In this document: one piece after another, positions 2,662-33,970 of the stretch
Numbering within the stretch: position 1 is the stretch's first letter
How the letters are laid out: the number at the start of each line of letters is the position of its first letter
Assembly: GCA_013298845.1 (NCBI GenBank)
Contig: JAAFJN010000008.1
Location: forward strand, 1-64,000
Origin: Chitinophagales bacterium
Lineage (GTDB): Bacteria; Bacteroidota; Bacteroidia; Chitinophagales; Saprospiraceae
DNA length: 64,000 nucleotides
Direction: 5' to 3'
Program-made: the position numbers and the translations under genes
The notes under the pieces: generated by a model
What the model was told of the DNA's origin: nothing
Database searches by the model: none
Seen by the model: only the letters and a program-made list of their open reading frames with translations

Positions 2662-3360
2662 TTATAGTTTTTCCAAAACATCCATCACGGCCTGCTTGTA
2701 TTGCCGCCCCACCGGAATGGTATGCCCGCCAGCGTTGATTTCGGTGAGCGAATACGCCGATATGTGCGGAATGGCCACCAAAAACGACCGGTGTACGCGC
2801 AACAACTGGTGCTCTTTCAGCATCAGTTCGAGCGACGAAAGGGGGTATTTGGTCATAATGGATTCGCCGTTGGACATGTAAATACGCACGTATTCGCGCA
2901 GGCTTTCGACCATCACAATTTCGTCGAGCCACACGCGCATCATTTTTTTATTAACGTTGAAAAAATAAAAACGGCGGCCTTTGCTCGCGTGCGTCGTTGG
3001 TAGATCGGGGCGTTTAATTTTGTTGGTAGCCTGAAAAAACCGCTCAAAAGAAATAGGTTTGAGCAAATAATCGGTCACGTGCAAATCAAAACCTTCCACC
3101 GCGTATTCGTGGTAAGCGGTGGTGACAATCGTTTGCGGCGGATTAGGCAAACTGCGCAAAAAATCCAGCCCTTTTATGCCCGGCAGGTTAATGTCGAGAA
3201 AAAGAATATCCACCGATTGCGTTTGCATGGCTTCGGTGGCCTGAACGGCGTTGGAACAGCGGCCCACGTAGTGCATCCACGGCACAAACTGAATGTACTC
3301 TTCCAGTACCTGGGCGGCTAAAGGTTCGTCTTCTACAATTAAACAGTTGAGCGTAATCAT
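2662..3360 (-). CDS. LytTR-family response regulator
   Basis: A 232-residue cytoplasmic response regulator. The receiver domain covers about residues 1-118, with the acidic pair E10/D11, the phosphoacceptor Asp56 (in LFLDINLPG) and Lys101 (in YLLKPIS). The LytTR DNA-binding domain covers about 130-230, with the typical VESLREYVRIYM and LLRVHRSFLVAI segments. Its ATG overlaps the stop of the upstream LytS-like kinase (ATGA at 3360-3357), so translation is coupled and the two form a pair. Genes downstream encode an efflux channel and adaptor, which suggests (inference) that the pair controls the pump operon. LytTR proteins usually bind direct repeats upstream of target promoters; none was clear here. 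Confidence 0.92.
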   Translation of the reverse strand: MITLNCLIVEDEPLAAQVLEEYIQFVPWMHYVGRCSNAVQATEAMQTQSVDILFLDINLPGIKGLDFLRSLPNPPQTIVTTAYHEYAVEGFDLHVTDYLLKPISFERFFQATNKIKRPDLPTTHASKGRRFYFFNVNKKMMRVWLDEIVMVESLREYVRIYMSNGESIMTKYPLSSLELMLKEHQLLRVHRSFLVAIPHISAYSLTEINAGGHTIPVGRQYKQAVMDVLEKL

Positions 3361-4355
3361 GGGTAGGTAATTTTTAAAGTGGCGGAATAAGCATCGTCGG
3401 TTTCACTGGTAACCAAGGAGCCGGAATTGGGGTAAAGCAGTTCCAATTGTCGGCGGATATTTTGTAAACCAATGCCTTTTTGGGTTGTATTCGCCACCGA
3501 TGCCCGCGAATTTTCAACTTTCATTTCAAATTGTTTGCGCTGCAATCGGATCGAAATGTGCACCCAGGCTTCATCCATACTTTCGCCCGCCCCGTGTTTA
3601 AAGGCATTTTCGACCAAAGGCAACATGAGCAAAGGCGTGACGGGCTGTTTTACATCGTCAATATCGGTGTCAAATTTTACGGTGAGGCGTTCTTCGTCAA
3701 AACGCAGGCGCTCCAACTCGACGTATTGTTTTAAATGGGTGACTTCCTGTTCAATGCGCACCGTGGGTGCCGAAGAATCGTACAACAAATAGCGCAGTAA
3801 ATTGGCCAATTGCATGGCCACCGGCGCGGTTTGGTCCGATTTTACCCGCGCCAACGCGTACAAATTATTGATGGTATTGAACAAAAAATGCGGGTTTAAC
3901 TGGTTTTTTAACGCCTGCAACTCCGCTTCCGATTTTTCGGCCCGCAACGCCGTTTCGCGCCGGATAAATTCCTGCTGCCGGAAATACAACCGCGCCGTCA
4001 GGGCCGAACCCGCCGCTACGACCGAATCAAGGGTATCGGTAATAAAGCGGTGGCTGAAAAATTCAAAATTGTAGTCGGGGAACCACACCGGCCCGATGTA
4101 GACCATTTTGATAAAACGCACCATCAATCCGCCGAGCAAAATAGCCGCCAAAATACCGGCAAATGCCTTCCAGGACGGGCGCAATTTGTCGAAACACCAA
4201 AAAGACAGGTAAGTGGCGATCATGCGGGCGGGCATCATCACGCCTTCCGTGATGGCGAACTTGCCCCACTCTTTTTCGTAATTACCGTTGGAAAACGTAA
4301 AAACAAACCAATAAGCCAGCCAAAAACCGGCATGCAATAACCACCTGTTTTTCAT
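3357..4355 (-). CDS. LytS/YehU-type sensor histidine kinase
   Basis: A 332-residue membrane histidine kinase of the His_kinase (PF06580) family. Hydrophobic segments fall near residues 8-22, 42-56 and 65-85, with a further weakly hydrophobic helix about 105-125; then a short coiled coil (EFIRRETALRAEKSEAELQALK) leads to the phosphoacceptor His156 in LNPHFLFNTINNL. The ATP-binding half has the N-box (PLVENAFKHG) and a glycine motif (GIGLQNIRRQLELLY). The sensor part lacks a large extracellular domain, so the signal probably acts within or near the membrane. It is coupled to the LytTR regulator by a 4-base overlap. The minus motif CAACTTTG just upstream of the start is a poor match to a -7 box. 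Confidence 0.9.
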   Translation of the reverse strand: MKNRWLLHAGFWLAYWFVFTFSNGNYEKEWGKFAITEGVMMPARMIATYLSFWCFDKLRPSWKAFAGILAAILLGGLMVRFIKMVYIGPVWFPDYNFEFFSHRFITDTLDSVVAAGSALTARLYFRQQEFIRRETALRAEKSEAELQALKNQLNPHFLFNTINNLYALARVKSDQTAPVAMQLANLLRYLLYDSSAPTVRIEQEVTHLKQYVELERLRFDEERLTVKFDTDIDDVKQPVTPLLMLPLVENAFKHGAGESMDEAWVHISIRLQRKQFEMKVENSRASVANTTQKGIGLQNIRRQLELLYPNSGSLVTSETDDAYSATLKITYP

Positions 4356-4385
4356 GTTGCAAAGTTGGTCAAAAAATGAGGATAT

Positions 4386-4490
4386 CCGGCGTGGTTTTTA
4401 TACTGAGCGGCTGGTTTTGTACACCAACATTGGGAAACACCCAACATTTTGATGCACAAAACCAGCCGAGTCGAAATATATTTACGCCGG
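4386..4490. repeat. nested inverted-repeat element of about 105 bp
   Basis: Two nested perfect inverted repeats are visible. The outer pair is CCGGCGT at 4386-4392 and ACGCCGG at 4484-4490. The inner pair is CGGCTGGTTTTGT at 4408-4420 and ACAAAACCAGCCG at 4456-4468, with a small inner TTGGG/CCCAA hairpin. It fills the gap between the LytS-like start and the CHU_C gene stop. It could end transcription of the CHU_C gene or be a small palindromic mobile element; there is no long U-tract, so simple terminator function is doubtful. Confidence 0.6.
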
Positions 4491-4500
4491 AATCGGTTGT

Positions 4501-7263
4501 TTATTGCCGGTTGAGCAGCACTTCAATCCAGCCGCTGAGGGTCGAGTACAACACTGTATTACCGTTCACATCGGGGATAAATACGCGGCATTTGTACAAA
4601 TAAGCCCCTTCGGCCACGGGTTGGCCGTTTTGCGCGGTACCGTCCCATTGAATCGCCGGGTCTTGGGTTTCAAACACCAGATTCCCCCACCGATTGTACA
4701 CCTGCATGTCCACTTTATTCACAAAACGCCAGCCGGGGAACGGCTCAAACACGTCGTTGCTGCCGTCGCCGTTGGGCGTAAAGGTATTGGGCAATTCGTA
4801 AAAAGCGCAATTTTCGACGCAAACACTGTCGGAACGGGGACTTTCGTTGCCCAAAACATCAAACGCACTAATGGCGTAACAACCCGCCAACGAACCGGTT
4901 AACTCGTGGATAAAACGGGTACTGTCGGGGCTATTATACGTTTGCAACAAGGTGAGCGGCGAATTAATGTCGGGAGCGTACCATATTTTAAACCCGGCCA
5001 AATCATTCGCTTCGGGGCAATTGCCGGGATTATTCCAAGTCAGGATATTTTCAAACGGCGGATCGGGCGCAATCACAACGTCGCCGGTAGTGCACCGGTT
5101 GGCAATGCTAAGATCGGGGGTACAAGGCGGCACCGTGTCCACGGGAGTTCCGCAAGATTCCTGACTCCAGTTGAGCAGCGGCGACACAATACCCGCTACG
5201 CCATAAGTACCTTCGCTGCGCACTTTATAACAGTATTCGACGCCGTTTTCGAGGTTTTTGTCCTCGTAGCGGCGCGAACTGGAGACGCCAATGAGGTCAA
5301 AAATACCCGTAAAGGCATTGAGCCGGTACACTTCGTAGTTGTAGTTGTTCCACGGCACATTTTCCTGCCAGGTCAAAATATTTTTTTGATCCGAACTGCC
5401 CACGTTTAAAAACACCGACGAAGCGTTGTTGGTGCTGCCCAAGGGCGTCGAATTGCCTTTTACGTAAAAAGCCACCTGGTAATGGTAAGGCCCGCCGCTG
5501 GTATTCAGGTTGTTATCGGTAAAACAGGTATCGTTGGCCAAATAAAAAGACGGCGCCACAAACGACGCACCCGGCACCTCGGTCAAAGTGCCGCCCGTGA
5601 ACCCGTCGGCCCGGAGCAATTGGTAGCGGTAAGGCCCGGGATTGAGGATCGTATCGAGATCAGCCGCCAATGGTTTGGACCAACACACCTCCATGCTGCC
5701 GCTGGTATTCGAGGTCGTATTCACCGATACGTGGGTAATGACGGGAATATCGCGGGGCAATTGCACGCACACTTCCCGCGACGGCAAACTTTCCACGATG
5801 TTAAAAGGAGTGCCTCCGGCGGTGATTTTGGCAAATTTGGCCAATACCCGATAACAATACGTGCGGCCCCGCTGCACATTTTCATCTTTAAAATAATAAC
5901 GCCCGTCCACCTCTTTTCGGGTAATAAAAATCATTTCCGTGTATCCTTTTCCGGCCAAACCGGGCGCACAGGTATCGGGAACAAAAGGGTTACTGCCCTC
6001 CCTTCGCCACACCGAAAACCCGTAAAAAGAGTTATTTTCGGTCGTTTCGCAGAAATAAGGTTTATCCCAGGTAACTTCGACGGTACCGTCGTTCGAAGTG
6101 GCCGTTACGCCCTCGGGCGCCGGACCGACCACTTTGATACTGACACTTTTCAGGTCGGAGAGTTTGGGTTCACCGGGACTGATAGTATCGGTGGCTTTAA
6201 ACACCACCACGTAAGGCTGGTTGGAAATATGTTCGCAATCGGTGACCCAGTCAAACGTTCCTTTCAAAACGGGAAGTTGCCAGCCTTGCGGCACGGTGAA
6301 CGTCGCCGGGCTAAAAGGCGTGCTCAAAGGGCCGCCGAGGGCCGTGAGCACCACCAAATTCCCCGTGTCGGGGTCATTTGCAAACACATCGAACCGAACG
6401 GTATTCCCCGCCGTAACGCAAAATTCATCTTCCGTGGTGACAATGGGCGGGTTATTGTCGCATTTTTCCACAAAAATCTGCATGTCGCGGATGGTGGTAT
6501 CAATGGCCACCCCTCGGCGCCACGAGATAATGTAAAAGGCAATATTGTAATCTCCGGCCACCTGCGGCGATAACCACAACAGGTCGCCGCTGACCGGATC
6601 TAATTGTAAAATATTGTTCGGCCCCGGACTTACCTGATTGGGAAAACTGTAATTGGGGACGTTTTGACCACTAAATTGCAGCGGAACAATCAATTCGTAC
6701 GAAATACTGTCGCCGTCGGGGTCGTAAGCGTTGGGGTTGTGTTTAAATGGTTTTCCCACGCAGGCGCGGTCAATGGGCGGTTGTAACAAATACGGGGTGG
6801 TGTTGGTCACGCCAAATTGCACACTTTGAAAGGTAAAACTGGTTTCCACGTGAAAAGGCACCAAATCGGAAGTGGGCGGATTAACGTTGATAATACCCGC
6901 CACGCGGTTCAAATCCGTCATCGAAATGGTGTACGTGGCCTGTCCCGCGTAGGTGTGAATGGCCACGTACGTGTTGTATTTTACGTCGTTGGGGAGGGGC
7001 TGCCCGTTGCCATTGGTGCGATAAACAACCTCGCAGGGAGAACCATCGCCCCAACAAATATCCAACGAGTCGCGGTCCACGCTGGCGCTGCTGGTTTTGG
7101 TCCAGGTAATAATGGTAGCCCGGATGGTGAGCGGCCCAATTTGTTCGATATGAATTTCGCCGGCGCGGTTGTGGGTAGCCGTGGCGATAAATGGCAGTGA
7201 AAAGAACAGGCAAACTGCGAGTAACAGTTGCCGGGGCGTTTTTGTGTTCGGAAGTAGCATCAT
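4501..7263 (-). CDS. large secreted protein with gliding-motility/T9SS type B (CHU_C) C-terminal domain
   Basis: A 920-residue exported protein. A signal peptide (hydrophobic LLLAVCLFFSLPFIATA) is followed by an N-terminal region starting THNRAGEIHIEQIGPLTIRA that is recurrent in CHU_C proteins of this group, then repeated beta-sandwich modules of FN3/PKD type (for example PAPEGVTATSNDGTVEVTWDKP). The last 95 residues or so form the CHU_C domain (LPNTFTPNGDGSNDVFEPF, YNRWGNLVFE, WDGTAQNGQPVAEGAYLYK), the type B sorting signal recognised by T9SS. It is therefore likely surface-attached or released. A TACCTTTG -7 box at 7332-7325 and two short hairpins in the leader precede it. Ligand and function are unknown. 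Confidence 0.88.
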   Translation of the reverse strand: MMLLPNTKTPRQLLLAVCLFFSLPFIATATHNRAGEIHIEQIGPLTIRATIITWTKTSSASVDRDSLDICWGDGSPCEVVYRTNGNGQPLPNDVKYNTYVAIHTYAGQATYTISMTDLNRVAGIINVNPPTSDLVPFHVETSFTFQSVQFGVTNTTPYLLQPPIDRACVGKPFKHNPNAYDPDGDSISYELIVPLQFSGQNVPNYSFPNQVSPGPNNILQLDPVSGDLLWLSPQVAGDYNIAFYIISWRRGVAIDTTIRDMQIFVEKCDNNPPIVTTEDEFCVTAGNTVRFDVFANDPDTGNLVVLTALGGPLSTPFSPATFTVPQGWQLPVLKGTFDWVTDCEHISNQPYVVVFKATDTISPGEPKLSDLKSVSIKVVGPAPEGVTATSNDGTVEVTWDKPYFCETTENNSFYGFSVWRREGSNPFVPDTCAPGLAGKGYTEMIFITRKEVDGRYYFKDENVQRGRTYCYRVLAKFAKITAGGTPFNIVESLPSREVCVQLPRDIPVITHVSVNTTSNTSGSMEVCWSKPLAADLDTILNPGPYRYQLLRADGFTGGTLTEVPGASFVAPSFYLANDTCFTDNNLNTSGGPYHYQVAFYVKGNSTPLGSTNNASSVFLNVGSSDQKNILTWQENVPWNNYNYEVYRLNAFTGIFDLIGVSSSRRYEDKNLENGVEYCYKVRSEGTYGVAGIVSPLLNWSQESCGTPVDTVPPCTPDLSIANRCTTGDVVIAPDPPFENILTWNNPGNCPEANDLAGFKIWYAPDINSPLTLLQTYNSPDSTRFIHELTGSLAGCYAISAFDVLGNESPRSDSVCVENCAFYELPNTFTPNGDGSNDVFEPFPGWRFVNKVDMQVYNRWGNLVFETQDPAIQWDGTAQNGQPVAEGAYLYKCRVFIPDVNGNTVLYSTLSGWIEVLLNRQ

Positions 7264-22497: not shown

Positions 22498-23007
22498 TTG
22501 CGGGCGCAAAAGTAAAAAATCGCCGTTTTGCGGGGTCTTTTTCGGACAAAAAAGGGGTTGTGGGGTGCGGACGGTGGGGATTGTGGGGGGCAAGAATGTA
22601 ACTATACAGCCGCTTGTGGCGGCGATTTTTTCACTTACACATGACCTTGGTGAATACCATGAAACGCTTGGCAGGCAAATCCCGCCCGATCTGGGAATAC
22701 CTCGGTTAAATCTGGATTAGATTGATGGGACACGGATTTACACGGATTAGACACGGATTTACACGGATATTTTGTTGTGCTGAAAAATCCATAAAATCCG
22801 TGTCCATTACTGACAAGACATTTATCTGTTTTTCTATGTGATTTGGTTTGGGATTTTTTAGAAATCACCCGCACACTCCAACGCTCAAGAATACATTGTT
22901 TTCCGTAAAAGAACGTTCCAATGGGTCGTCTTCAAAAGTTCCACAATCATGGACCTATTCAAATAGTGCCATCGTGTTACACCATTATAACTCTTGTTTT
23001 TCTATCA
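22498..23007. other. intergenic boundary region with repeats before the RM island
   Basis: About 500 bases. It holds the DUF5916 promoter, one copy of the 18313-type inverted-repeat arm (GTAACTATACAGCCGCTT, 22598-22615), a duplicated 21-base direct repeat and a 12-bp inverted repeat (22728-22805). From about 22806 the sequence becomes clearly AT-rich. A short reading frame across the repeats is almost certainly not a gene. Confidence 0.5.
22728..22805. repeat. direct and inverted repeats of the ACACGGATT type
   Basis: A unit of about 21 bases beginning GACACGGATTTACACGG occurs twice in tandem (22729-22769). The inverted copy AAATCCGTGTCC (22794-22805) pairs with GGACACGGATTT (22728-22739) over 12 bases. 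Repeats of this type recur between genes in diverse bacteria. Confidence 0.7.
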
Positions 23008-26000
23008 TTATGCATTAGCAAATTCATCAGCAATCAGTTTCGCTTGTTCTAGTATAGTCTTCACGGCTTGATCTTGTTTTTCTGGTGGATAATCGTACTT
23101 CTTTAGAATCCTTTTTATCATTACCCTCATTTTGGCTTGAACGCTCTCTTTTTTGTCCCAATCAATAGTAACTGAGTTTCTAACACTTTCTACCAACTCT
23201 CTGGCTATTGTCTTCAAAACCTCATCACCCATTTTTAGTACAGCGCTATGGCTCACTTCTAATGCATCATAAAACGCCAATTCTCTAAAGTCAAGGTTTA
23301 GATTTTCACCCCGCTTATCGGCTTCTTTAATTTCATTGGCAAGTCGGATAAGTTCTTCAATGATTTCTGCGGCTGTCAATGCATTATTTTGGTAACGTTT
23401 GATAGCTTCTGCCAACATTTCGGAGAACTTTTTACTCTGAACAATATTTTTTACCGAGCGCTGCTTGATTTCATCATTGAGAAGCCTCCTCAAAAGTTCT
23501 AACGCTAAGTTCTTTCTTGGCATATTTTTCAACTCTGCCATAAACTCATCCGAAAGAATATTTAAACCTGATATTTCAGGATTCTGCAAACCAGATGCCT
23601 GGAAAATATCAATAACCTCCGTTGAAATCAACGCATCTGAAATTATTTGCCGAATGGCTGTTTCGACCTCTTCATCTGTTCGTTTTTTCTTGCTTTCTCT
23701 AAGTTTTGAAATTCTTGCCTTAATAGCTTGAAAAAAACTCAAATCATCTCTTATTGCAATAGCCTTAGGATGAGGAACTGAAATCGCAAACGCTTTGGAC
23801 AGATTGGAAACAATGGTACTATAACGCTCCTGGCCTCTGTCTAATCCTAAAATAAAATCGGTAGCGTCTAATAGAAAATTGAGTTTTTCCCTTGGCTGTA
23901 ATCCGAAAAAACGTTTGTAATCGAAACCATAGAACAAGTTTATAGCTGTTTCATAGAGTTCTTCCATTTTGGCAACTGCTTCTTCCTGATCAAACTCAAT
24001 CTTGCCTTTTCCACCGCTTGATGTATATACGCTCAGTGCCTTTTTCAAATCTTGGGCTATGCCTAAATAATCTACAATTAAGCCACCTTCCTTATCTCTA
24101 AATACTCGGTTTACCCTTGCAATTGCTTGCATGAGATTATGACCTGTCATCGGTTTATCAATATATAACGTATGCAGACAAGGAGCATCAAAACCCGTAA
24201 GCCACATATCCCGAACAATTACCAATTTTAAATCATCGCTCGGTTCTTTCAATCGGTCGCCGATGGTTTTCCTTCTTGGCTTGTTGCGAATATGCTCTTG
24301 CCAATCCAGCGGGTCTGATGAAGAACCTGTCATAATTACCTTAATGGCTCCCTTGTCATCATCACCACTATACCATTCAGGACGAATTTTGATAATCTCA
24401 TTATGCAAAGCCACGCAGATTCTGCGGCTCATACATACAATCATTCCTTTACCGTCAAATGCCTCGCTGCGTTGCTCAAAGTGTTTTACAAGGTCTGCCG
24501 CAACTTGCTTTAATCGCTTGTCGCTGCCTACAATGGCTTCTTGTTGTGTCCATTTGGCAAAGCGTTGTTGGCGTTCGGTTAGTTCGTCTTCTTCGGTAAC
24601 TTCTTCAATTCGTTGGTCAATGATTTCCTGTTCTTCAGGGTCAAGTTCTATTTTGGCTAATCGGCTTTCATAGAAAATGCGAACAGTTGCACCATCTTCA
24701 ACGGCTTGCTGTATATCGTAAATATCTACATACTCGCCAAAAATAGCTTGTGTATTCTTATCTTCTTTTTCAATAGGAGTACCGGTAAACCCAATAAAAG
24801 AGGCATTAGGTAAGGCATCGCGTATGTGGCGGGCAAAACCATCAATAAAGTCATACTGGCTTCGATGGGCCTCATCGGCAATGACTACAATATTCCTACG
24901 ATCAGATAGTTGCGGATATATTGCCCCTTTTTCTTCGGGCATAAATTTTTGAATCGTAGTGAAAACTACACCACCCGACACCACCGAAAGTAAACTTTGT
25001 AGATGACTTCTGTTCTCTGCCTGAACTGGTGTCTGCCGGATGAGTTGCTGGCAGTTACTAAATGTTTCAAAAAGTTGTTGATCCAAGTCGTTCCGGTCGG
25101 TGAGTACTACAATGGTTGGGTTATTGAGTTGTGGCGTTACTACCATTTTACCCGCATAAAAAACCATACTCAAACTTTTGCCACTTCCTTGTGTATGCCA
25201 AACTACCCCTGCCCGTTTGTCGCCTAAAAGTGCTGCGGCCTTAATCGTTGAATGAATAGCTTTGTTTACCGCGTAGTATTGGTGATACGCGGCTATTTTC
25301 TTCACTGTTTTGTCTTTGGTTTTCTCAAAAATAATGAAGTAGCGTATCAGGTCAACGATAGTTTCTTTGCGCAACATTCCGCTCAGCACTACATCCATTT
25401 CAATATTGGCCGTTGGCCTTGCAAAGAGTGTTGAATTATATATTTCGTCCAGATCTGTAGCAATAATATCAGATGGATTATCTGGTATTTTCCAACCACT
25501 AAAACGACTCCAATCGCTGGTAATGGTTCCTGCCTTGGCAAACCAACCATCTGTCACTATCAAAAAACTGTTATAATTAAATAAGGTAGGAATGGCTTGT
25601 TTGTAGGTCATCAACTGATTATAAGCGGCTTTTAGGTCGGCTTTTTCATCAGTTGCGTTTTTGATTTCAATAACAACCAATGGCAGTCCGTTGATGAAAA
25701 TGATTACGTCAGGGCGTTTTTTGTTTTGGTTTTCTACAATGGTGAATTGATTGACGGCTGCAAAATCGTTATTCTGAGGATTATGAAAATCAATCAACCA
25801 AACTTTAAAGGTTTTAACTTGCTCCCCTTCTCGGCCTTTTATATCAACACCTTCGGTAATGAGTTTGTGAAATGCTTCGTTGTTGGCTAATAAGTTGGTA
25901 AATGGAATTCGTGAAATAGTACGCAAGGCTTCTTCCCGCACTTCGGCAGGAACTTCAGGGTTAATTTTGTCAATAGCGGCTTGTAAGCGGTCGGTTAAAA

Positions 26001-26112
26001 CTACTTCATTGTATTGCCGCTCAATGTTTGCCCCATTGAGTATTTCATAGCCTTGCTCCTGCAAGGTTTGCAACGCCATTTGTTCTATTACTTCTTCTGA
26101 TAGTATGTTCAT
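23008..26112 (-). CDS. hsdR: type I restriction enzyme, restriction/translocase subunit
   Basis: The 1034-residue HsdR subunit cuts unmethylated DNA after ATP-driven translocation as part of the HsdR2M2S complex. The N-terminal nuclease has a PD-(D/E)XK motif (Pro134-Asp135, Glu149-Ile150-Lys151 in LVVIEIKN). The SF2 motor follows: Walker [10 protein letters not shown] (305-313), the DEAH-box (413-416) in [14 protein letters not shown], motif III GFTGTP, and later motifs such as [12 protein letters not shown] and [15 protein letters not shown]. The C-terminal part is helical and contacts the methylase. All key residues are present, so it looks active. Its ATG shares one base with the stop of the HEPN-motif gene (TAATG at 26114-26110), so translation is coupled. 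GC is near 40 percent on sampled lines, well below neighbours. Confidence 0.96.
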
Positions 26113-27155
26113 TATGGCACAATTAAATTTTGTAATTCAACTTTCTCTGCGTCAAACCTACTTTGCAAAGAGTCGTAGCAAACATTATTTCTGACTTTTA
26201 CTGGTTCATACCAAAACTTACTGTCTCGTTTTCCTTTATAGACGCTTAAATATGTTTCGTGCCCAGTATCATCGTGTTGGTAATGCATAAATGGCGAGAG
26301 GCTGAAAAGGTCTTCATCCCATTTAGCAAAAATCACTTCACCGGGATTAGTCATGACATAAGTAAGTCTTTCCGGTTGAACTGAAACATTGTGGTTGCTT
26401 TCTCGTTGTAAAGAATAGGCTTTAAAAATTTGAAAGTGGTATCTGCTGTCAAAACTCTCAAATCTAAGTATGCTTACATTTTCAAAGAATCTGATGTTCT
26501 TCAAAACTTTTCTAAAAAGTGGAATTACAATATTCAACTCGGCTTCCGCCTGCTCTCTTGTAGGTGTAGATGTATGCGAAAAATGGTTTCTATTATTTTG
26601 CAGATCATATAGTGATTCAATCAACTCTATTTTTATAAAGTATCCGCATTTTAAATTCAATCCATTTGCATTAGAATAATTGACAACGGCTTTGATGTTT
26701 TCTAGAATCTGCTTTAATTCATCTGTTAGTAGTATTCTTGAATTAAATTTCAAATTTGGTTGTCCACTGTGATAAACATCTGCTGTTTTTAAGTCAACAC
26801 TCTTTGCCCTTACTTCCCCCCAAACCAAAGCATTTAAAACGAAAATTACGGCTTCCCAACTATCCTTTAGATGTAAAAACTTTGAGATTGGATTTCCTGA
26901 GCCTGGACCTCTCTCGGAAAGCCAATAATTATATGCAATACTATCTGGTAGTTCCTTAAAAGCAAATTGTTTTAACTCTTCAATTTGTCTATCATAAAAG
27001 TCCGTTAATGCAATCCGGTAGGTTTCCCTTTGCATATTAAATAAGACTTCACTTGGTCTGAATGTAGCACCTAATATTTCTACTGGATTTTCGCTTTCAT
27101 CTAAATCCAAGTTGAAATCTTCGTGATCTTCATATCTCAATTCTTCTATTTCCAT
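26112..27155 (-). CDS. HEPN-motif protein embedded in the type I RM operon
   Basis: A 347-residue protein with no signal peptide or membrane segment. Residues 145-240 are helical and contain RNHFSH at 189-194, which fits the HEPN ribonuclease signature R-(N/D/H)-x3-H; HEPN domains typically act as metal-independent RNases in toxin and abortive infection systems. The N-terminal part (about 35-125) is helical as well ([29 protein letters not shown]). The C-terminal third is beta-rich ([41 protein letters not shown]) and could be a sensing domain. I do not recognise the full-length family. It lies 7 bases after hsdS and overlaps the hsdR start. Base composition is the most AT-rich of the window (one sampled 60-base line, 26581-26640, has 14 G/C). 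Confidence 0.7.
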
Positions 27156-27162
27156 AAGATCA

Positions 27163-28323
27163 TTAAGTGGTTAAAGGGTTTACGATGATTTCTCCTGACA
27201 TAAGTTTGGGCAGCAAACTATCTCTCAAATCTTTTAGGTTTTCGTTTTCTTCAATATTATCCTGGATTTTCTGGAACAATGGAAGAACTATGCTATGGTA
27301 TTCCTGAACCAATTCGCTTGGCGGGATGACAAGTTTATATTGTAGAAGTAGTTGCTGACTGATATTCTGCTGTGCTGAACCGACAGCACGGCTGACAATG
27401 TCTTGTTTTGAGTTCAGTAGAAAATTATAGATGAATGAAAAAGGATATTGTTCATTAGGTAAAAAGGCACAAATAGCTTGATTACAAGTGAATTTACCTG
27501 TGATAATTCCTATTTCACCAACTGTTGCCCCATACATTGCTATCAAAACCGAATGCTCTGGCAATAATTTGACAGAAGAGTTCTTCAAAGCATTTTCGGT
27601 TATTTTTTCTTCCGTATCAATAATAAAAGAGTTGTTGAGTTCCTTTGATTTTACCCAACCAATAATCCCATTTTCATAATATTCAGGTTTACTTCTGCTT
27701 GGTGTTCCGCCCGAAGTGGTTTTGTAAATATCTCCCAATGTCCCTACCTCCCAACTCTCAGGAATTTCCCCAAACTCACTTTGCTTTAAGTTGCCGCTTG
27801 CATTGGGATAGTTGAAATTGACAAACCACTCCTTAAAAAGCGTTCGAGCAATTTCTTCAAGGGTTTGGTTGGCAGCAAGGTTGTTTTCGATTTTATCGTC
27901 TATTGTCGAAAGTATGAACGAAATTTTTTCTTGAATTGATTTTTCAGGGATGGTAATTTCTAACTCATTTAAAACTTGAACTGTCATACTTGGCACGGCA
28001 GTGCCAACATTCATTTCTGAATAGTTAAAGGTTGTGAGTTTGTAAAAAAGAAATTTTGGGTCTATTATTTCTCTGTTGAGAATTGTGTAAAACATTGTGT
28101 CAACAGTCCAAAACGGTTTATCCAAAAAGAACAAATTATTCAGAGTCCCCTTTCTTGGAATGAGTATAGATGTATCTTGATAAAGTGCTTTGTCTGCAAA
28201 TCGCATTATTCCACCACTACCGTAAACTGGAATATCACCATCAGAAAGTGCTTTATGGTCTTTCCCATATTTAACTTCTAATACTTGTTCTAATTTATAG
28301 GTTTGCCACTCATTCAAACTCAT
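27163..28323 (-). CDS. hsdS: type I restriction-modification specificity subunit
   Basis: HsdS reads the bipartite DNA target and positions the two HsdM and two HsdR subunits. The protein (386 residues from the ATG at 28323; a TTG two codons upstream is less likely) has two target-recognition domains: TRD1 about 5-125 ([20 protein letters not shown]) and TRD2 about 190-330 ([19 protein letters not shown]), each followed by a conserved helix ([56 protein letters not shown]). The two half-targets cannot be predicted by eye. It overlaps the hsdM 3' end by 14 bases. It is strongly AT-rich, as is the following HEPN-motif gene. Confidence 0.94.
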
Positions 28324-29833
28324 ATCCAATTCTTTTTAAATTTTCACGAATGGTATTTTCTATTGCATTGTCTTTGGCAAACTGTTCGGCAAGTCTGGCG
28401 GTAAGGCTTTGCATTTTTTCATCAAAGGGCATATCGTCAGTTTGCTCGTCTTCCGTGCCTACATATCTTCCGGGCATCAGAACATAGTTGTTTTGGCGCA
28501 CTTCTTCCAAAGTGGCAGATTTGCAAAAACCGGCTATATCAGCATATCCACCATTTACATTTCGCCACATGTGGTAAGTGCTGCTAATCACGTCAATGTC
28601 GGCTTGCTCCAATACTCGGTTTCGTCTGTTTATCATTTTGCCCATTTTGCGGGCATCAATAAACAGAATGTCGTTTTCACGGTTTCGGAATTTTCCGTTC
28701 GTTTTGTTCTTTGCCAAAAACCACAGTGAAGCGGCAATGGTGGTATTGTAAAACAAGTTCGCTGGTAGCGTAACCATACAGTCCACCAATCGGGCTTCAA
28801 TCATATTTTTTCTTATTTCGCCTTCGCTGCCTGTGTTGCTGTTCATACTTCCGTTTGCCAATACAATCCCAGCCGTACCGTTAGGGCTTAGTTTATGAAT
28901 AAAATGCTGCAACCAGGCATAGTTGGCATTGCCCACGGGCGGAACGCCATATTTCCACCGCACATCATCACGCAGTTGCTCGCCTTTCCAATCACTAATG
29001 TTAAACGGCGGGTTTGCAATAATGTAATCTGCTTTTAAGTCGGGGTGTAGGTCGTTGGTAAACGTGTCGCCAAATTGTATGTTGGCGTCAATGCCACGAA
29101 TAGCAAGGTTCATTTTTGCTAATTTTACGGTGGTTGGGTTGCTCTCTTGTCCGTAAATACTCAGGTCGCCAATTTTACCTTGATGGCTTTCAATGAATTT
29201 TTCGCTTTGGACAAACATTCCGCCACTACCACAACAACCATCATAAATTCGGCCTTTATAGGGTTCGAGCATTTCTACCAAAAGCGTCACAATACTTTTA
29301 GGCGTGTAGAACTGCCCCCCATTTTTGCCTTCAGCGGCCGCAAACATTCCTAAGAAGTATTCATATACTTGTCCGAGAATATCTTCTCCTTCATGTCCAC
29401 CCCCAAACCCAATTTTACTAATTAAGTCAATGAGTTCACCCAAGCGCTGTTTATCAAGGTCAGTATCCGCATAATTTTTGGGCAACACACCTTTTAGGCT
29501 GTCGTTAATTTTTTCGATGCGGTCCATTGCCTGATCAATTAAAATACCAATTTCAGGCTGTTTGGCATTGTCTCTTAAGAACGTCCAACGAGACTTTTCA
29601 GGCACATAGAAAACATTTTCAGCCAAATATTCGTCCGGGTCTTCAGGGTTTGCCCCTGCGTATTCCCCTTGCCCTTCTTGTAGTTTATGGTGTAGTTCGG
29701 CAAAAGCGTCTGAAATGTATTTTAGGAAAATAAGTCCCAAAACAACGTGTTTATATTCTGCCGCGTCCATATTGCTCCGCAGTTTGTCAGCCGCAGCCCA
29801 AAGGGTTTTTTCGATGTCTCTTATTTCGCTCAT
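28310..29833 (-). CDS. hsdM: type I restriction-modification methyltransferase subunit
   Basis: A 507-residue N6-adenine methyltransferase that protects host targets and forms the core of the type I complex. The N-terminal helical domain (about 1-130; [13 protein letters not shown]-like start, [19 protein letters not shown]) is followed by the catalytic Rossmann domain with the SAM-binding motif [11 protein letters not shown] (197-207) and the catalytic NPPF (274-277). GGQFYTP (172-178) is the usual family block before motif I. It is the first gene of a four-gene operon with overlapping or near-overlapping frames. Promoter boxes upstream are weak (TAACTTTTG about 29860), so expression control is not clear. 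Confidence 0.96.
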
Positions 29834-30109
29834 TAATTTTTTATTTTGTTATTGTTATCAGCAAAAGTTACAGGAAACCCTGCTGATCTCATATCACTTT
29901 ATGCAACATTTTACCCCTGCTGTATTCCGATAATTAGGGACCTAAAATACTTGGATAATAATCACTTCAAAATTAGCATTTACCCCACAAAGTTACCCAA
30001 ATCCACCAAACCAAACTAATCAACCATCATTTTTTTTCAAAATTTCAAAAAAACACCACCTTCGTGCGCGTATTTACCGAATATTGCAAGCGTCCGGGCG
30101 AAGCAACCA

Positions 30110-31225
30110 TCACTGCCCCGCCACCACAAACTCAACCACCTCCGTAAACGTACTCCCGTTGAAAGTACACAGGCCATGCGCATCCGTGCCGAACCAAAGT
30201 TCGCCGTTGTTATCCTGACAAATGGCGCTGACGGCATTGCTCGGGAGGCCGTCTTTGGTGGTATAATTGGTCAAAACGCCCTCGTAATACCTCCAAACGC
30301 CCGCGTCCGCGGTCCCGACCCAAATCGCGCCGCTATTGTCTTCGTTAATCGTATATACCCGCGCCAGGGTGTTTAATCCTGACTTACCGGTGGCCCTGAA
30401 ATCCGCGTTGCCCAGTTGGTGTTCTTCGGTGACGTTGACGAGGGTGCGGCCATCGTAGCGGAACAAACCGGCTCCGTTGTTGCCCATCCAGATAGTACCC
30501 TTGCTGTCTTCCAACAAGGCCAGCACTGCGGGTCCGGCCAGTCCTTTTTCGGTGAACCACGTATGGCTTTTCCCGTCGTAGCGGCACACCCCGCGGGCTT
30601 GGGTGCCCATCCATATTTGCCCTTTTTGGTCGCGCAAGGTTGTATAAACAGCGGAGGGACTGAGCGTAAACGCCGTTTGATCGGTATTTTTTGAAGTCTT
30701 CGTCGTCCGGGGAAACGGCAAATAGGTCAGGGCCGACGAGCGGTACCGAAACACCCCGGCCCCGGCAAAAAACCACAGATCGCCGAGGGCGGCGTTCCAG
30801 TTATGGGTGGTTTCGATGGTAAAATCCGGGTTATTGGTATAAGCGGTGAAGGTAGTACCGTCAAATTTGCTGATGGCAAAACCCGCGCTTTCCAACCAAA
30901 TATTCCCAGCCTCATCTTCCTGAATGGACACAACCTGGTTATCGGCCAGCCCGTCTTTTACGGTGTATTGCACCAACGACTTTTTATCGTAGCGAAATAC
31001 CCCGGCCCCATTGGTACCGAACCAATAAGCCCCCTTTTTGTCCTGGTAAATACTGCGAATGTTTTTATCCACCCTGGTAGCATTGGACAAATAAGTCGGC
31101 GGCGGCGGGGTAGGGGCCGTTGAGACCGGCTTGTTGTTTGGATTGGCGGCGTTCTCCGGCGGTGGTGTACCGGTGCAAGCAACAAGGAGCAAGAGGATGG
31201 TCAGGCGAAGTATTTTTTGTGTCAT
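30110..31225 (-). CDS. two-component-regulator-type propeller lipoprotein
   Basis: A 371-residue lipoprotein when started at the ATG at 31225 (MTQKILRLTILLLLVACTG, Cys17). The upstream extension to 31333 has no signal and is unlikely. After a P/T-rich linker (about 25-50) come repeated Reg_prop blades: IRSIYQDKKGAYWFGTNGAG, VVSIQEDEAGNIWLESAG, VLALLEDSKGTIWMGNNGAG, VYTINEDNSGAIWVGTADAG and AVSAICQDNNGELWFGTDAH. This is the propeller found as the periplasmic sensor of hybrid two-component systems, but here it is not fused to a kinase. It could bind a sugar or partner kinase in trans. It separates two accessory modules, the RM operon and the ImmA/PIN pair. Confidence 0.8.
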   Translation of the reverse strand: MTQKILRLTILLLLVACTGTPPPENAANPNNKPVSTAPTPPPPTYLSNATRVDKNIRSIYQDKKGAYWFGTNGAGVFRYDKKSLVQYTVKDGLADNQVVSIQEDEAGNIWLESAGFAISKFDGTTFTAYTNNPDFTIETTHNWNAALGDLWFFAGAGVFRYRSSALTYLPFPRTTKTSKNTDQTAFTLSPSAVYTTLRDQKGQIWMGTQARGVCRYDGKSHTWFTEKGLAGPAVLALLEDSKGTIWMGNNGAGLFRYDGRTLVNVTEEHQLGNADFRATGKSGLNTLARVYTINEDNSGAIWVGTADAGVWRYYEGVLTNYTTKDGLPSNAVSAICQDNNGELWFGTDAHGLCTFNGSTFTEVVEFVVAGQ

Positions 31226-31354
31226 TGTACGGTTGTTTGGCGCAAAGTACGAAAGTTTGTTGTCTTTGATCTTGGCTAGGGCGGGGCGCGGAAAATACCA
31301 TTGCAGCCCATAGTTAAGAACAGCAAGGTACACTATCCGATTTTTGAAAAAAAA

Positions 31355-31386
31355 TTTGTTTTATAAAGTTTACAAACCTAAATTTG
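31355..31386 (+). promoter_or_regulatory. promoter of the XRE-ImmA/PIN operon
   Basis: TTTG at 31355-31358, 20-base spacer, TAAATTTG at 31379-31386: a full match to the Bacteroidota consensus. The ATG is 33 bases downstream. Confidence 0.75.
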
Positions 31387-31404
31387 CATTGAAATTTGTA
31401 AACT
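31367..31404. promoter_or_regulatory. operator-like inverted repeat around the -7 box
   Basis: AGTTTACAAA at 31367-31376 and its perfect complement TTTGTAAACT at 31395-31404 flank the -7 box with an 18-base gap. The spacing (28 bases centre to centre) suits a DNA-binding XRE dimer or two dimers and predicts autorepression by the gene that follows. Confidence 0.65.
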
Positions 31405-31418
31405 AAAACACAACAACA

Positions 31419-32474
31419 ATGTCTATCTTTGGAAATCGTCTCGCCATAGCCCGAAAAATGGCTGGTTTATCATTGCAAGGACTTTCTGACAAAATGGGAG
31501 GGGTAGTCGGGCGGCAGGCACTTCATAAGTATGAACAACACGAAGGTTTACCCAACAGCAGAGTGTTAATCGCTTTGGCGCAGGCTTTGAACGTTCCGGT
31601 TGACTTTTTCTTCGCTGAACCAGAAATCCAGGTTGTTTTAGAACACGTGGATTATCGGAAAAAATCCGGGATGAGTAAAACCCAACAAATGGCCATTGAA
31701 GAGCAGTGCGTTGAGGAGTTAAACCGCTATCTTTCGTTGGAATCTATCATGCAGGAAGAGAAAGAGATGTCTGAATTTGTGTTTAATAAAATGGTATCAA
31801 ACACCGACGACGTAGAAGCGGCGGCTCAACAACTGCGTAGGGACTGGGAACTTGGAGATGCTCCCATTCCAAACGTAGTGGCAATGCTTGAAGACAAGGG
31901 TTATAAAGTAATAGAACTCAATACCGATGCTAATTTTGACGGGTTGAAGGCTTACGCTGGTCGGGCCAGGGTGATTGGGCTAAATAAAAACATCGAAGAT
32001 GTTTGCCGAAAGCGATTTACTGCTTTACATGAACTGGCGCACCATGTACTCCTTTTCCCTACCGATATGCCCGAGCGGGAAAAAGAACGCCTGTGTCATT
32101 GCTTTGCAGGGGCGGTCTTATTCCCCAAGATACAAGCCAGAGAGTCTATGCATAACGAAAGGTTTCATTTTTACCTGCCAGAATTGGTGATGATAAAGGA
32201 ATACTGGGGCATTTCTATTGCTGCTCTTTTTGCCAGGGCTAAAAACTTAGGTATCATTAGTGAGCATGTCCATACCAAATTGATGATTGGCTATAATGCG
32301 CGTAAATATCGGGAGGGTGAACCCGGAAACTTTAGAGGGGAAGAACAGCCGCTCCGTTTTCGGCAGTTATTATATCGGGGGTTGGCGGAAAAAATTATTA
32401 GCATCAATGAAGCAGCATCTCTAACCCAAAAGACGGTTGGAGCACTACGAAATGAACTTGACCAACTCGTATGA
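31419..32474 (+). CDS. XRE-type HTH regulator fused to ImmA/IrrE metallopeptidase
   Basis: A 351-residue protein. Residues 5-65 are an XRE helix-turn-helix (RLAIARKMAGLSLQGLSDKM, RQALHKYEQHEGLPNS). Residues about 150-290 are an ImmA/IrrE (COG2856) Zn-peptidase with the HExxH motif His204-Glu-Leu-Ala-His208 and the third ligand region ERLCHCFAGAVLFP, where Glu223 fits the metal-binding position. The C-terminus is helical. ImmA proteases cleave repressors, and XRE-COG2856 proteins serve as antitoxin-like partners in toxin-antitoxin pairs. Its stop overlaps the start of the PIN gene (ATGA), which supports a paired system. The promoter with an inverted repeat over it points to autoregulation. Confidence 0.85.
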   Translation: MSIFGNRLAIARKMAGLSLQGLSDKMGGVVGRQALHKYEQHEGLPNSRVLIALAQALNVPVDFFFAEPEIQVVLEHVDYRKKSGMSKTQQMAIEEQCVEELNRYLSLESIMQEEKEMSEFVFNKMVSNTDDVEAAAQQLRRDWELGDAPIPNVVAMLEDKGYKVIELNTDANFDGLKAYAGRARVIGLNKNIEDVCRKRFTALHELAHHVLLFPTDMPEREKERLCHCFAGAVLFPKIQARESMHNERFHFYLPELVMIKEYWGISIAALFARAKNLGIISEHVHTKLMIGYNARKYREGEPGNFRGEEQPLRFRQLLYRGLAEKIISINEAASLTQKTVGALRNELDQLV

Positions 32475-33136
32475 AAATAGTCGTTACTGACACGAATGTA
32501 TTCATTGACTTAATTCAATCGAATACTATCGATGCGTTTTTTGAGTGTCCATTGGATATTTACACCACAGACTTGGTCATATATGAAATAAATGCGCCTG
32601 GTCAACGCGAATGCCTGGACAAATACATTTCGTCAGAACGGCTAAAAGTAATGGAACTAAGCGAAACTGAAATCGCCGAAGCCTTCGCCCTGAAAACCGA
32701 ATGTAATTTGAAACGTATCACGGACAAATCGGTACTCCTTAAAGCGATTCAAATGCAGGCTTGCCTGCTCACAGGGGATGGTGATTTACGGAAAGAGGGT
32801 AAAAGGGCTGGTTTGGAGGTCCGGGGTACACTTTGGGTATTCAGAGAAATTTGGTCGGCCGGATTATTAGATTCTACCACTTTGTTAAAAAATTTAGAAA
32901 TTCTCGACCTCAATACTCGATTACCACAAGATGCCTTGGGCGAGATGAAGCGCGTGATTTACAAAAATAGCAACCTACATCCCACCCCGCACATAAGGCG
33001 CCACTTCCTGCCCGCAAAAATCGCCCGCGAGGTATTTGTAATAAGCCGTTACCCCGATCATGGCGGCGTTATCGGTGCAATATTCAAATTTGGGGATAAA
33101 ATATTCCCAGCCTTCTTTGGCGCACAGGGCTTGTAA
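32471..33136 (+). CDS. PIN-domain nuclease, putative toxin, with C-terminus running into tsaD
   Basis: A 221-residue frame. Residues 1-130 form a PIN domain with the four acidic positions Asp7 (VTDTNVF), Glu39, Asp85 (TDKSVLL) and Asp103 (LTGDGDL), so a metal-dependent RNase is expected. About 165 residues suffice for the domain; the remaining residues (after NSNLHPTP) are encoded antisense to the last 162 bases of tsaD and probably do not belong to the ancestral protein. The ATG lies within the last codons of the ImmA gene. In XRE-ImmA/PIN pairs the PIN protein would be the toxin, though which member neutralises the other is inference. Codon use looks closer to the RM island than to tsaD. 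Confidence 0.8.
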   Translation: MKIVVTDTNVFIDLIQSNTIDAFFECPLDIYTTDLVIYEINAPGQRECLDKYISSERLKVMELSETEIAEAFALKTECNLKRITDKSVLLKAIQMQACLLTGDGDLRKEGKRAGLEVRGTLWVFREIWSAGLLDSTTLLKNLEILDLNTRLPQDALGEMKRVIYKNSNLHPTPHIRRHFLPAKIAREVFVISRYPDHGGVIGAIFKFGDKIFPAFFGAQGL

Positions 33137-33970
33137 ACCTTCGCGCAAGCCCGAGTTGGCGCTCACGCCACCGGCAATGGCCAGTTGTTTAATGCCCGTT
33201 TTTTTGGCCGATTTTTTGAGTTTTTTCAGCAAAACGGTCACGATAATGTGCTGAATGGACGCGCAAATATCAGCCAGATTTTGTTCGATAAAATCGGGAT
33301 TGGCGGCCACTTCCTTTTTTAAAAAATACAAAATGGAGGTTTTTAAACCACTAAAACTAAACCCCAAATCTTCAATGACGGGTTCGGGAAACGGGAAACG
33401 CGGGGTGCCCTGCCGCGCCAAACGGTCAATGTGCGGCCCGGCGGGGTATTCCAAACCCAACATTTTACCCGCTTTATCAAAGGCTTCCCCGGCGGCATCG
33501 TCGAGGGTTTGGCCCAAAATAGTCATGCTCAGGGGGCTGTCCACCCGGATAATTTGGGTGTGTCCACCGCTCACCGTCAGGCAAAGAAACGGAAAAGCCG
33601 GGTGGGGTTCTTCGGCAAAATGCGCCATCACGTGGGCGGTCATGTGGTCCACTTCGATGAGGGGCAACTGCCGCGCCAAGGCAAAGGCTTTGGCAAACGA
33701 GGTACCCACCAACAGCGAACCCAACAGGCCCGGCCCCCGCGTAAAGGCCACGGCGTTAATATCGGCCATGGTGATACCGGCCTTGTCAATGGCGGCTTTT
33801 ACCACGGGTACAATATTGTTCTGGTGCGCGCGCGAGGCCACCTCTGGCACCACGCCGCCGTATAAGCGGTGGATTTCCTGGTTGGCGACGCAGTTCGACA
33901 AGGGGCGACCGTCGTGAATAATGGCGGCGGCGGTGTCATCGCACGAAGACTCAATGGCTAAAATATACAT
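32975..33970 (-). CDS. tsaD: tRNA N6-threonylcarbamoyladenosine transferase
   Basis: TsaD (Kae1/YgjD family) transfers the threonylcarbamoyl group to A37 of ANN-decoding tRNAs, with TsaB and TsaE. The start is the ATG at 33970 (MYILAIESSCDDTAAAI), 331 residues; the 14-residue extension upstream lies partly in the ppiD-type terminator. Motifs: IESSCDDT, HMTAHVMAHF with the metal ligands His109/His113, the GGVSANSGLR loop and FIPKFEYCTDNAAMIG near the end. The C-terminal coding region (32975-33136) overlaps the antisense PIN frame. Confidence 0.95.
   Translation of the reverse strand: MYILAIESSCDDTAAAIIHDGRPLSNCVANQEIHRLYGGVVPEVASRAHQNNIVPVVKAAIDKAGITMADINAVAFTRGPGLLGSLLVGTSFAKAFALARQLPLIEVDHMTAHVMAHFAEEPHPAFPFLCLTVSGGHTQIIRVDSPLSMTILGQTLDDAAGEAFDKAGKMLGLEYPAGPHIDRLARQGTPRFPFPEPVIEDLGFSFSGLKTSILYFLKKEVAANPDFIEQNLADICASIQHIIVTVLLKKLKKSAKKTGIKQLAIAGGVSANSGLREGLQALCAKEGWEYFIPKFEYCTDNAAMIGVTAYYKYLAGDFCGQEVAPYVRGGM

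What the first reader, a model, noticed from the sequence alone, without database searches (positions are those of the whole stretch)
26112..27155. HEPN-motif protein built into a type I restriction operon between hsdS and hsdR
The sequence shows a 347-residue gene between hsdS (7-base gap) and hsdR (TAATG overlap) with an Arg189-Asn190-x3-His194 motif, the catalytic signature of HEPN RNases. Known HEPN nucleases such as PrrC sit beside type I RM systems and act when restriction is blocked, but this protein has no NTPase domain and is coupled to hsdR rather than standing in front of hsdM. Inference: it may be a backup RNase triggered when HsdR or HsdM is inhibited, with the beta-rich C-terminus as sensor.
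Basis: partly seen in the sequence, partly recalled or inferred. Interest (0 to 1): 0.72.

Follow-up and report, generated by a model that had tools for sequence, protein, structure and literature searches.

The report
HEPN-type toxin gene inside restriction operon
A bacterial DNA-restriction operon carries, in the slot where the anti-phage tRNA-cutting enzyme PrrC sits, an undescribed gene that looks like an RNA-cutting (HEPN-type) emergency toxin, and its front segment resembles both another toxin-like protein found in that slot and small proteins made by phages.

Summary
Confirmed: a 347-aa minus-strand ORF lies between hsdS (7-base gap) and hsdR (TAATG overlap) and carries R189-N190-x3-H194. 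Five distinct relatives occupy the same hsdM-hsdS-X place. RNx3H is invariant in 6 of 6, as is a second HEPN hallmark, Ex3[K/R] (E114, K/R118), although the window protein is only 25-29% identical to the others. The motif follows a predicted helix, as in HEPN domains. No profile library or fold search recognises the protein, so HEPN is well supported, not proven. New: residues ~10-66 form a module that recurs at the C-terminus of a different, Abi_C protein in the same slot of other operons, and in small phage proteins. The slot is an exchangeable cargo site; two other cargo proteins carry an HsdR C-terminal (assembly) domain. Best reading: a HEPN RNase guarding the restriction system, PrrC-like in logic but not in family, tethered or sensing through the N-terminal module. 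RNase activity, docking, latency and trigger are inferred.

The parts
26112..27155 (-). gene X: 347-aa HEPN-type protein, cargo between hsdS and hsdR
   Evidence: ORF and junctions; relatives in the same place
26958..27128 (-). N-terminal module of X, residues ~10-66, shared with Abi_C slot proteins and small phage proteins
26574..26591 (-). R189-N190-x3-H194, proposed HEPN active-site motif
   Evidence: invariant R, N, H in 6 of 6
26802..26816 (-). E114-x3-K118, second HEPN motif element (Ex3[KR])
   Evidence: E in 6 of 6, K or R in 6 of 6; motif as described in PMC3710099
26496..26891 (-). helical HEPN-like region, residues ~89-220
   Evidence: AF2 helices 89-117, 147-163, 176-187, 200-220 (modest confidence)
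26118..26474 (-). C-terminal region, residues ~228-346, predicted beta-rich, function unknown
   Evidence: pLDDT mostly under 50
28310..29833 (-). hsdM
   Evidence: PF02384 E 1.3e-112
27163..28329 (-). hsdS (TTG start in the ORF list)
   Evidence: PF01420 E 4.4e-41, 2 stretches
23008..26112 (-). hsdR
   Evidence: HSDR_N, SWI2_SNF2 and T1RH-like_C domains; TIGR00348

Best explanation
X is a HEPN-type ribonuclease effector carried as exchangeable cargo in the hsdS-to-hsdR slot of a type I restriction operon, the slot that holds prrC in the E. coli prr locus. Its gene is packed tightly against hsdS and hsdR, so it is probably made together with them. The likely logic is that of a guard: X stays latent while the HsdM/HsdS/HsdR complex is intact and cuts RNA, stopping the infected cell, when a phage factor inhibits or displaces the complex. 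The N-terminal module (residues ~10-66) is the likely docking or sensing part, because it is reused on a different toxin-like protein of the same slot. Shown: operon, conserved motifs, constant slot, cargo exchange, shared module. Inferred: RNase activity, binding to the complex, latency, trigger.
For: RNx3H and Ex3[KR] in 6 of 6, the two active-site elements described for HEPN (PMC3710099, passages); motif right after a predicted helix; hsdM-hsdS-X order in 6 of 6 with junctions of -4 to +9 bases; X exchanged independently of the RM core (window vs L007: HsdR 85%, X 27%); module shared with Abi_C cargo of the same slot; slot rich in toxin-like cargo; two slot proteins with an HsdR C-terminal domain, a domain thought to assemble with HsdM (PMC5248579); PrrC precedent in the same slot.
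Against: No Pfam, NCBIfam, PADLOC or PDB-sequence match; AF2 model weak (mean pLDDT 49) and Foldseek without significant match; HEPN proteins at hand do not rank high in profile comparison. X has no HsdR-like assembly domain and no NTPase. The module also occurs as free-standing phage proteins, so it need not be an RM-docking part.
Confidence: 0.5

Rival explanations
1. X is a self-standing abortive-infection HEPN toxin. Its N-terminal module senses a phage factor or a host target directly, and the RM slot only gives co-inheritance and expression.
For: The module is related to small phage proteins; the slot also holds cargo with no evident link to the RM complex, such as Fic, GmrSD, SIR2_2 and transposase-like ORFs; DarTG2, a toxin-antitoxin pair, lies in the same slot in an E. 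coli island (PMC12255303, passages).
Against: All 6 known X proteins are in this one slot, and the module was found in none of 148 phylum genomes outside the slot except one apparent chance match; two slot proteins carry an HsdR assembly domain.
Confidence: 0.28
2. X is not a HEPN RNase but a non-catalytic subunit or regulator of the restriction complex; RNx3H is a structural motif.
For: No profile or fold recognition; similar short motifs occur in transposase-like proteins of the same slot.
Against: Two separate HEPN elements are conserved in the right order and next to the right predicted helices.
Confidence: 0.15
3. X is a passive hitchhiker in a tolerant insertion site.
For: 54 of 60 examined slots with a recognised hsdS hold some same-strand ORF of 100 aa or more.
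Against: The reading frame and motifs are kept at 25-29% identity over long divergence, always in this slot and tightly packed.
Confidence: 0.05

Closest known systems
PrrC/EcoprrI (E. coli prr locus)
   Same: RNase-type effector encoded in the order hsdM-hsdS-X-hsdR of a type I RM operon; HEPN-superfamily active site in the view of PMC3710099; proposed backup when restriction fails
   Different: X lacks the ABC-type NTPase part and PrrC's R-x3-E...H triad layout (PMC2610378, passages); no sequence similarity was detected; X has the N-terminal module and a C-terminal region of its own
Other HEPN families linked to RM operons (at least 16 clades in PMC3710099, passages)
   Same: Rx4-6H with polar residue, Ex3[KR], RM neighbourhood
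   Different: X matches none of the HEPN models in Pfam; the fused module is not among the partner domains in the passages I read
Abi_C (PF14355) proteins of the same slot (L042, L056, L057, L067, L074)
   Same: same hsdS-hsdR slot; shared module (strong in three, weak in two)
   Different: different main domain; module at the C-terminal side instead of the N-terminus; X has no PF14355 match
DarTG2 between hsdS and hsdR (RRDM island, PMC12255303, passages)
   Same: toxin-type defence genes embedded in the same slot
   Different: unrelated toxin with its own antitoxin (partly recalled)

Membership tests
HEPN superfamily | Rx4-6H with a polar residue after R | tested here: met
   R189-N190-x3-H194; R, N and H in 6 of 6
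HEPN superfamily | upstream acidic residue, typically Ex3[KR] | tested here: met
   E114 in 6 of 6, K or R at 118 in 6 of 6; definition from PMC3710099
HEPN superfamily | helical bundle with the motif at the end of helix 3 | tested here: inconclusive
   helices fit but mean pLDDT 49; Foldseek best E 0.28 to cytochrome b561, HepT (a HEPN toxin) at ranks 5 and 9 with E 1.3 and 1.6
HEPN superfamily | profile similarity to known HEPN families | tested here: inconclusive
   not detected in Pfam or by hhalign to four HEPN or HEPN-like proteins; alignments are shallow (6 rows)
HEPN superfamily | RNase activity | not testable with these tools
   needs the bench
PrrC | gene between hsdS and hsdR of a type I operon | tested here: met
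PrrC | N-terminal ABC-type NTPase domain | tested here: not met
   no Pfam match of any kind in X
Abi_C (PF14355) | match to the Pfam model | tested here: not met
   none in 6 X proteins at E up to 10
type I RM system (the operon) | HsdM, HsdS with recognition domains, HsdR with nuclease and motor domains | tested here: met

The most novel reading that the evidence does not exclude
The ~55-aa module is a portable adaptor by which different toxins (the HEPN-type X, Abi_C proteins) attach to the type I restriction complex. The small phage proteins of the same family, some of them early genes, are anti-restriction or host-takeover factors that bind the same surface, so that the phage's own protein displaces the toxin and triggers it: a homologous version of the Stp-PrrC switch.
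Probability: 0.12. Interest if true: 0.87.

Novelty: new variant of a known kind. Interest (0 to 1): 0.56.

Why it matters
PrrC is the textbook toxin that guards a restriction enzyme, but how such toxins attach to and sense the enzyme is poorly known. A small module shared by two different slot proteins and by phage proteins, together with slot proteins that carry an HsdR assembly domain, turns that question into direct binding and displacement tests and suggests that the hsdS-hsdR slot is a general dock for guard effectors.

Tried and rejected
Foldseek in PDB and BFVD: nothing at E 0.001 or better. Kinship of X to DUF4145-like slot proteins or to slot proteins with RNY[YF]EH: not found; two of the latter scanned singly hit the IS200-type transposase model, one above and one below its cut-off. 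An HsdR C-terminal domain in X: not found. My first idea that X in general diverges as fast as HsdS was dropped: the five other X proteins are 51-71% identical to each other; only the window copy is far off. PDC-M36B match of the L005 X (E 0.001, 29 residues) and phrog_10390 (E 0.0016 in one member that the output does not name) were not pursued. More relatives: none but the known two among 395 class genomes, none but itself among 17 of the genus of G376. The G240 module match (E 0.005) lies in a 529-aa ORF with no visible link; taken as chance. Of the tblastn matches of the window module in phages (43 records, all E 1 or worse) I opened two; the Salmonella phage one lies on the strand opposite to an annotated lysozyme gene and was dropped. 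Rfam: nothing at 22500-33500. Promoter-like sites 25 against 19.7 (sd 4.6) and terminator-like 10 against 9.8 in shuffles: not used. The PF18737 search found nothing, controls included, so it says nothing.

Full report
Observation. The ORF is real and lies on the minus strand: window 26112-27155, 347 aa, in the operon hsdM (28310-29833), hsdS (27163-28329), X, hsdR (23008-26112). The hsdS-X gap is 7 bases, and X and hsdR share the A of TAATG. HsdM, HsdS and HsdR have the expected domains. X matches nothing in Pfam, PADLOC or NCBIfam; its best PDB sequence match has E 0.056.

Relatives. Among 198 related genomes only the window's own has X. Of 395 genomes spread over the phylum, two have it: the window's and G376. 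A scan of one genome for each of 84,980 species with two peptide patterns made from that pair gave 5 loci (a first scan with the window protein alone gave none). One of them, L008, appears to be the G376 contig itself (same length and ORFs), so I know 6 distinct X proteins: window, G376 (L002/L003), L004, L005 (Riflebacteria MAG), L006 (Anaerolineae MAG), L007 (Pedobacter). Nothing was found in plasmids, phages or three viral-contig scans. With the 6-row profile, 395 class genomes gave only the same two. X is rare and scattered over distant lineages, which suggests horizontal transfer (inference).

Context. In 6 of 6 the order is hsdM-hsdS-X, followed directly by hsdR in 5 and by a RhuM-family gene and then hsdR in L005. 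Junctions are -4 to +7 bases on the hsdS side and -4 to +9 on the other. Window versus the five others: HsdM 73-82%, HsdR 64-85%, HsdS 28-36%, X 25-29% identity. Window and Pedobacter L007 share 85% in HsdR but 27% in X, while L007 and L003 share 67% in HsdR and 71% in X. X has thus been exchanged independently of the RM core.

HEPN or not. PMC3710099 (passages) describes the HEPN active site as Rx4-6H with a polar residue after R, at the end of helix 3, plus an upstream acidic residue, typically Ex3[KR], in helix 2. In X, R189, N190, F192, H194 and E114 are invariant and position 118 is K or R in 6 of 6. The AF2 model from six sequences has helices 89-117, 147-163, 176-187 and 200-220; E114 lies in the first and the RNx3H motif between the last two. 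That is the HEPN layout. Against it: mean pLDDT is 49, and Foldseek finds nothing at E 0.001 or better; the HEPN toxin of the MntA-HepT pair appears at ranks 5 and 9 (E 1.3 and 1.6), behind cytochrome b561 (E 0.28). hhalign of the helical region against 573 ORFs put the HEPN or HEPN-like proteins at list positions 63, 93, 139 and 254, counted from 0 with the six X proteins on top; HsdR pieces and other ORFs ranked higher. Of these four, one (L114) is over its Pfam cut-off, two (L096, L060) are below theirs, and one (L003) I call HEPN-like only from its motif (recalled). The two RiboL-PSP-type ones aligned exactly on the motif. Short motifs can mislead: five slot ORFs with RNY[YF]EH are one family, and it looks like an IS200-type transposase. 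I give about 0.8 for HEPN.

The N-terminal module. A profile of residues ~1-68 of the six X proteins, run against 573 ORFs of the surveyed loci, found besides X the 230-aa cargo protein of L042, L056 and L057 (E 5e-8 to 6e-7); the next ORF, from L067, has E 0.018. In the 230-aa protein the stretch is at the C-terminus, behind an Abi_C domain (PF14355, E 1.2e-7 for L057, the one I scanned singly), in the same hsdS-hsdR slot. hhalign gives E 1.7e-5. Two further Abi_C proteins of the slot carry weaker versions: L067 (Abi_C E 1.9e-17, module E 4e-4) and L074 (Abi_C E 7.2e-10, module E 0.25). A simple pattern for the module core, drawn up after the fact, hit 8 of 573 ORFs against 2.2 expected in shuffles; 5 of the 8 are these Abi_C proteins. 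It does not catch X itself.

Phage relatives of the module. PHROGs gave two small phage families in the same register for the window module, phrog_9396 (E 0.0037) and phrog_37123 (E 0.0048); of the five other modules scanned, four gave no family and one only two other, weaker ones. A weak tblastn hit (E 2) led to a 71-aa protein of Proteus phage 309, which has matches in 173 phage records. Nine of these proteins (alignment A9) compare with X at E 2.4e-5 and with the Abi_C slot proteins at E 7.4e-6; the second comparison had not been selected for. Scored with the X-only profile, 5 of the 9 phage proteins exceed every reported shuffle of themselves (P0001, L119, L121, L124, L125) and 4 do not (L120, L122, L123, L126); all three Abi_C proteins do. 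The phage-only profile, run over the whole 6.37-Mb genome of the window, gave one match at E 1 or better: X, E 3.2e-5. The founder P0001 had been chosen through the window, so this supports but does not independently prove the kinship. Among the 60 listed records, seven are of 41-42 kb; in six the gene lies in the first 3.2 kb and in one (MTT) at 10.8 kb. In the four of these regions that I opened it lies among small genes mostly of unknown function. T7-like phages keep early host-takeover genes at that end (established knowledge). All nine proteins are annotated as hypothetical. In 148 phylum genomes the module profile found the window, the G249 slot protein (both in its training set) and one match at E 0.005 that I take as chance.

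The slot. 75 of 395 phylum genomes have HsdR relatives at E 1e-150 or better, in 80 places. I examined 72 of the 80; of the eight left out, seven begin within 800 bases of the contig start. Four more loci came through X. In the 72, an hsdS was recognised in 60, and 54 of these have at least one same-strand ORF of 100 aa or more between hsdS and hsdR (derived, which counts 58 of 64 with the four X loci). ORFs were called mechanically, so some are insertions or spurious. Two of the 72 have X. Pfam on 103 of 109 cargo ORFs (five X relatives and one 1867-aa ORF left out) gave 70 families, among them Fic in 8 ORFs, IS200-type transposase in 6, Abi_C in 5, RhuM in 4, GmrSD_N in 4, YhcG_C in 3 and SIR2_2 in 3. 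X is one cargo of a much-used slot. This agrees with print: the prr order is hsdM-hsdS-prrC-hsdR (PMC3014915, passages), DarTG2 lies between hsdS and hsdR (PMC12255303, passages), and at least 16 HEPN clades neighbour RM systems (PMC3710099, passages).

Docking precedent in the slot. The L085 cargo of 407 aa, right behind hsdS and separate from the 1044-aa HsdR further down, ends in an HsdR C-terminal domain (E 1.5e-13 at 324-399). The L074 protein (Abi_C plus weak module) has one too (E 6.7e-7 at 340-382; PF11867 E 9.2e-5, below Pfam's cut-off). [quoted passage not shown] Two models of PADLOC's candidate family PDC-S15 match the C-terminus of our HsdR with the end of their own profiles, so such proteins may be widespread (inference). 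X has no such domain; whether its module does the same job is open.

Mechanism. Best supported: a HEPN RNase effector that guards a type I RM system as PrrC does (PrrC is silenced by EcoprrI and activated by the phage peptide Stp; PMC2610378, PMC12707154 and PMC3014915, passages), without PrrC's NTPase. Catalysis, contact with the complex, latency and trigger are inferred. The module is a stronger candidate for docking or sensing than the C-terminal region.

Literature. Nine library searches showed me no paper on this family. I saw their listings, and passages of six papers. Subscription papers and preprints are largely not covered.

Noticed in passing
L085 (407-aa ORF, oriented 3212-4435) and L074 (412-aa ORF, oriented 5777-7015): Slot proteins that carry an HsdR C-terminal (assembly) domain behind another domain: L074 behind Abi_C and a weak module, L085 behind a part that looks like an FRG domain (recalled motif, not scanned singly). 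They look like effectors that plug into the methyltransferase in HsdR's place.
   Followed up: partly
window 23008-26112 (HsdR residues 903-1025): PADLOC candidate defence family PDC-S15 matches the C-terminal domain of HsdR (E 2.4e-10) with the last part of its own profile, which suggests more proteins with a borrowed HsdR tail.
   Followed up: no
window 31419-33136 +: HTH plus M78-peptidase protein (PADLOC RmrA, E 2.7e-47) overlapping a PIN-like protein (PF01850 E 0.00048, below cut-off): a possible toxin-regulator pair beside the RM operon.
   Followed up: no
L003 1259-1957 +: 232-aa ORF with an RNSLVH motif about 3 kb upstream of the G376 hsdM; HEPN-like by motif only.
   Followed up: no
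L047, L048, L049, L062, L111 (slot ORFs): RNY[YF]EH occurs in an IS200-type transposase-like family inserted next to hsdR; the HEPN-like motif alone misleads.
   Followed up: yes
L112, L119, L120, L126 (phages 309, PM16, Lepni01, Kompost-2): Small unknown proteins of the module family lie near the left end of 41-42 kb phage genomes.
   Followed up: partly
G000:C8:10585-11103 (L114): The window's genome holds a clear RiboL-PSP-type HEPN protein elsewhere (E 1.3e-14).
   Followed up: no
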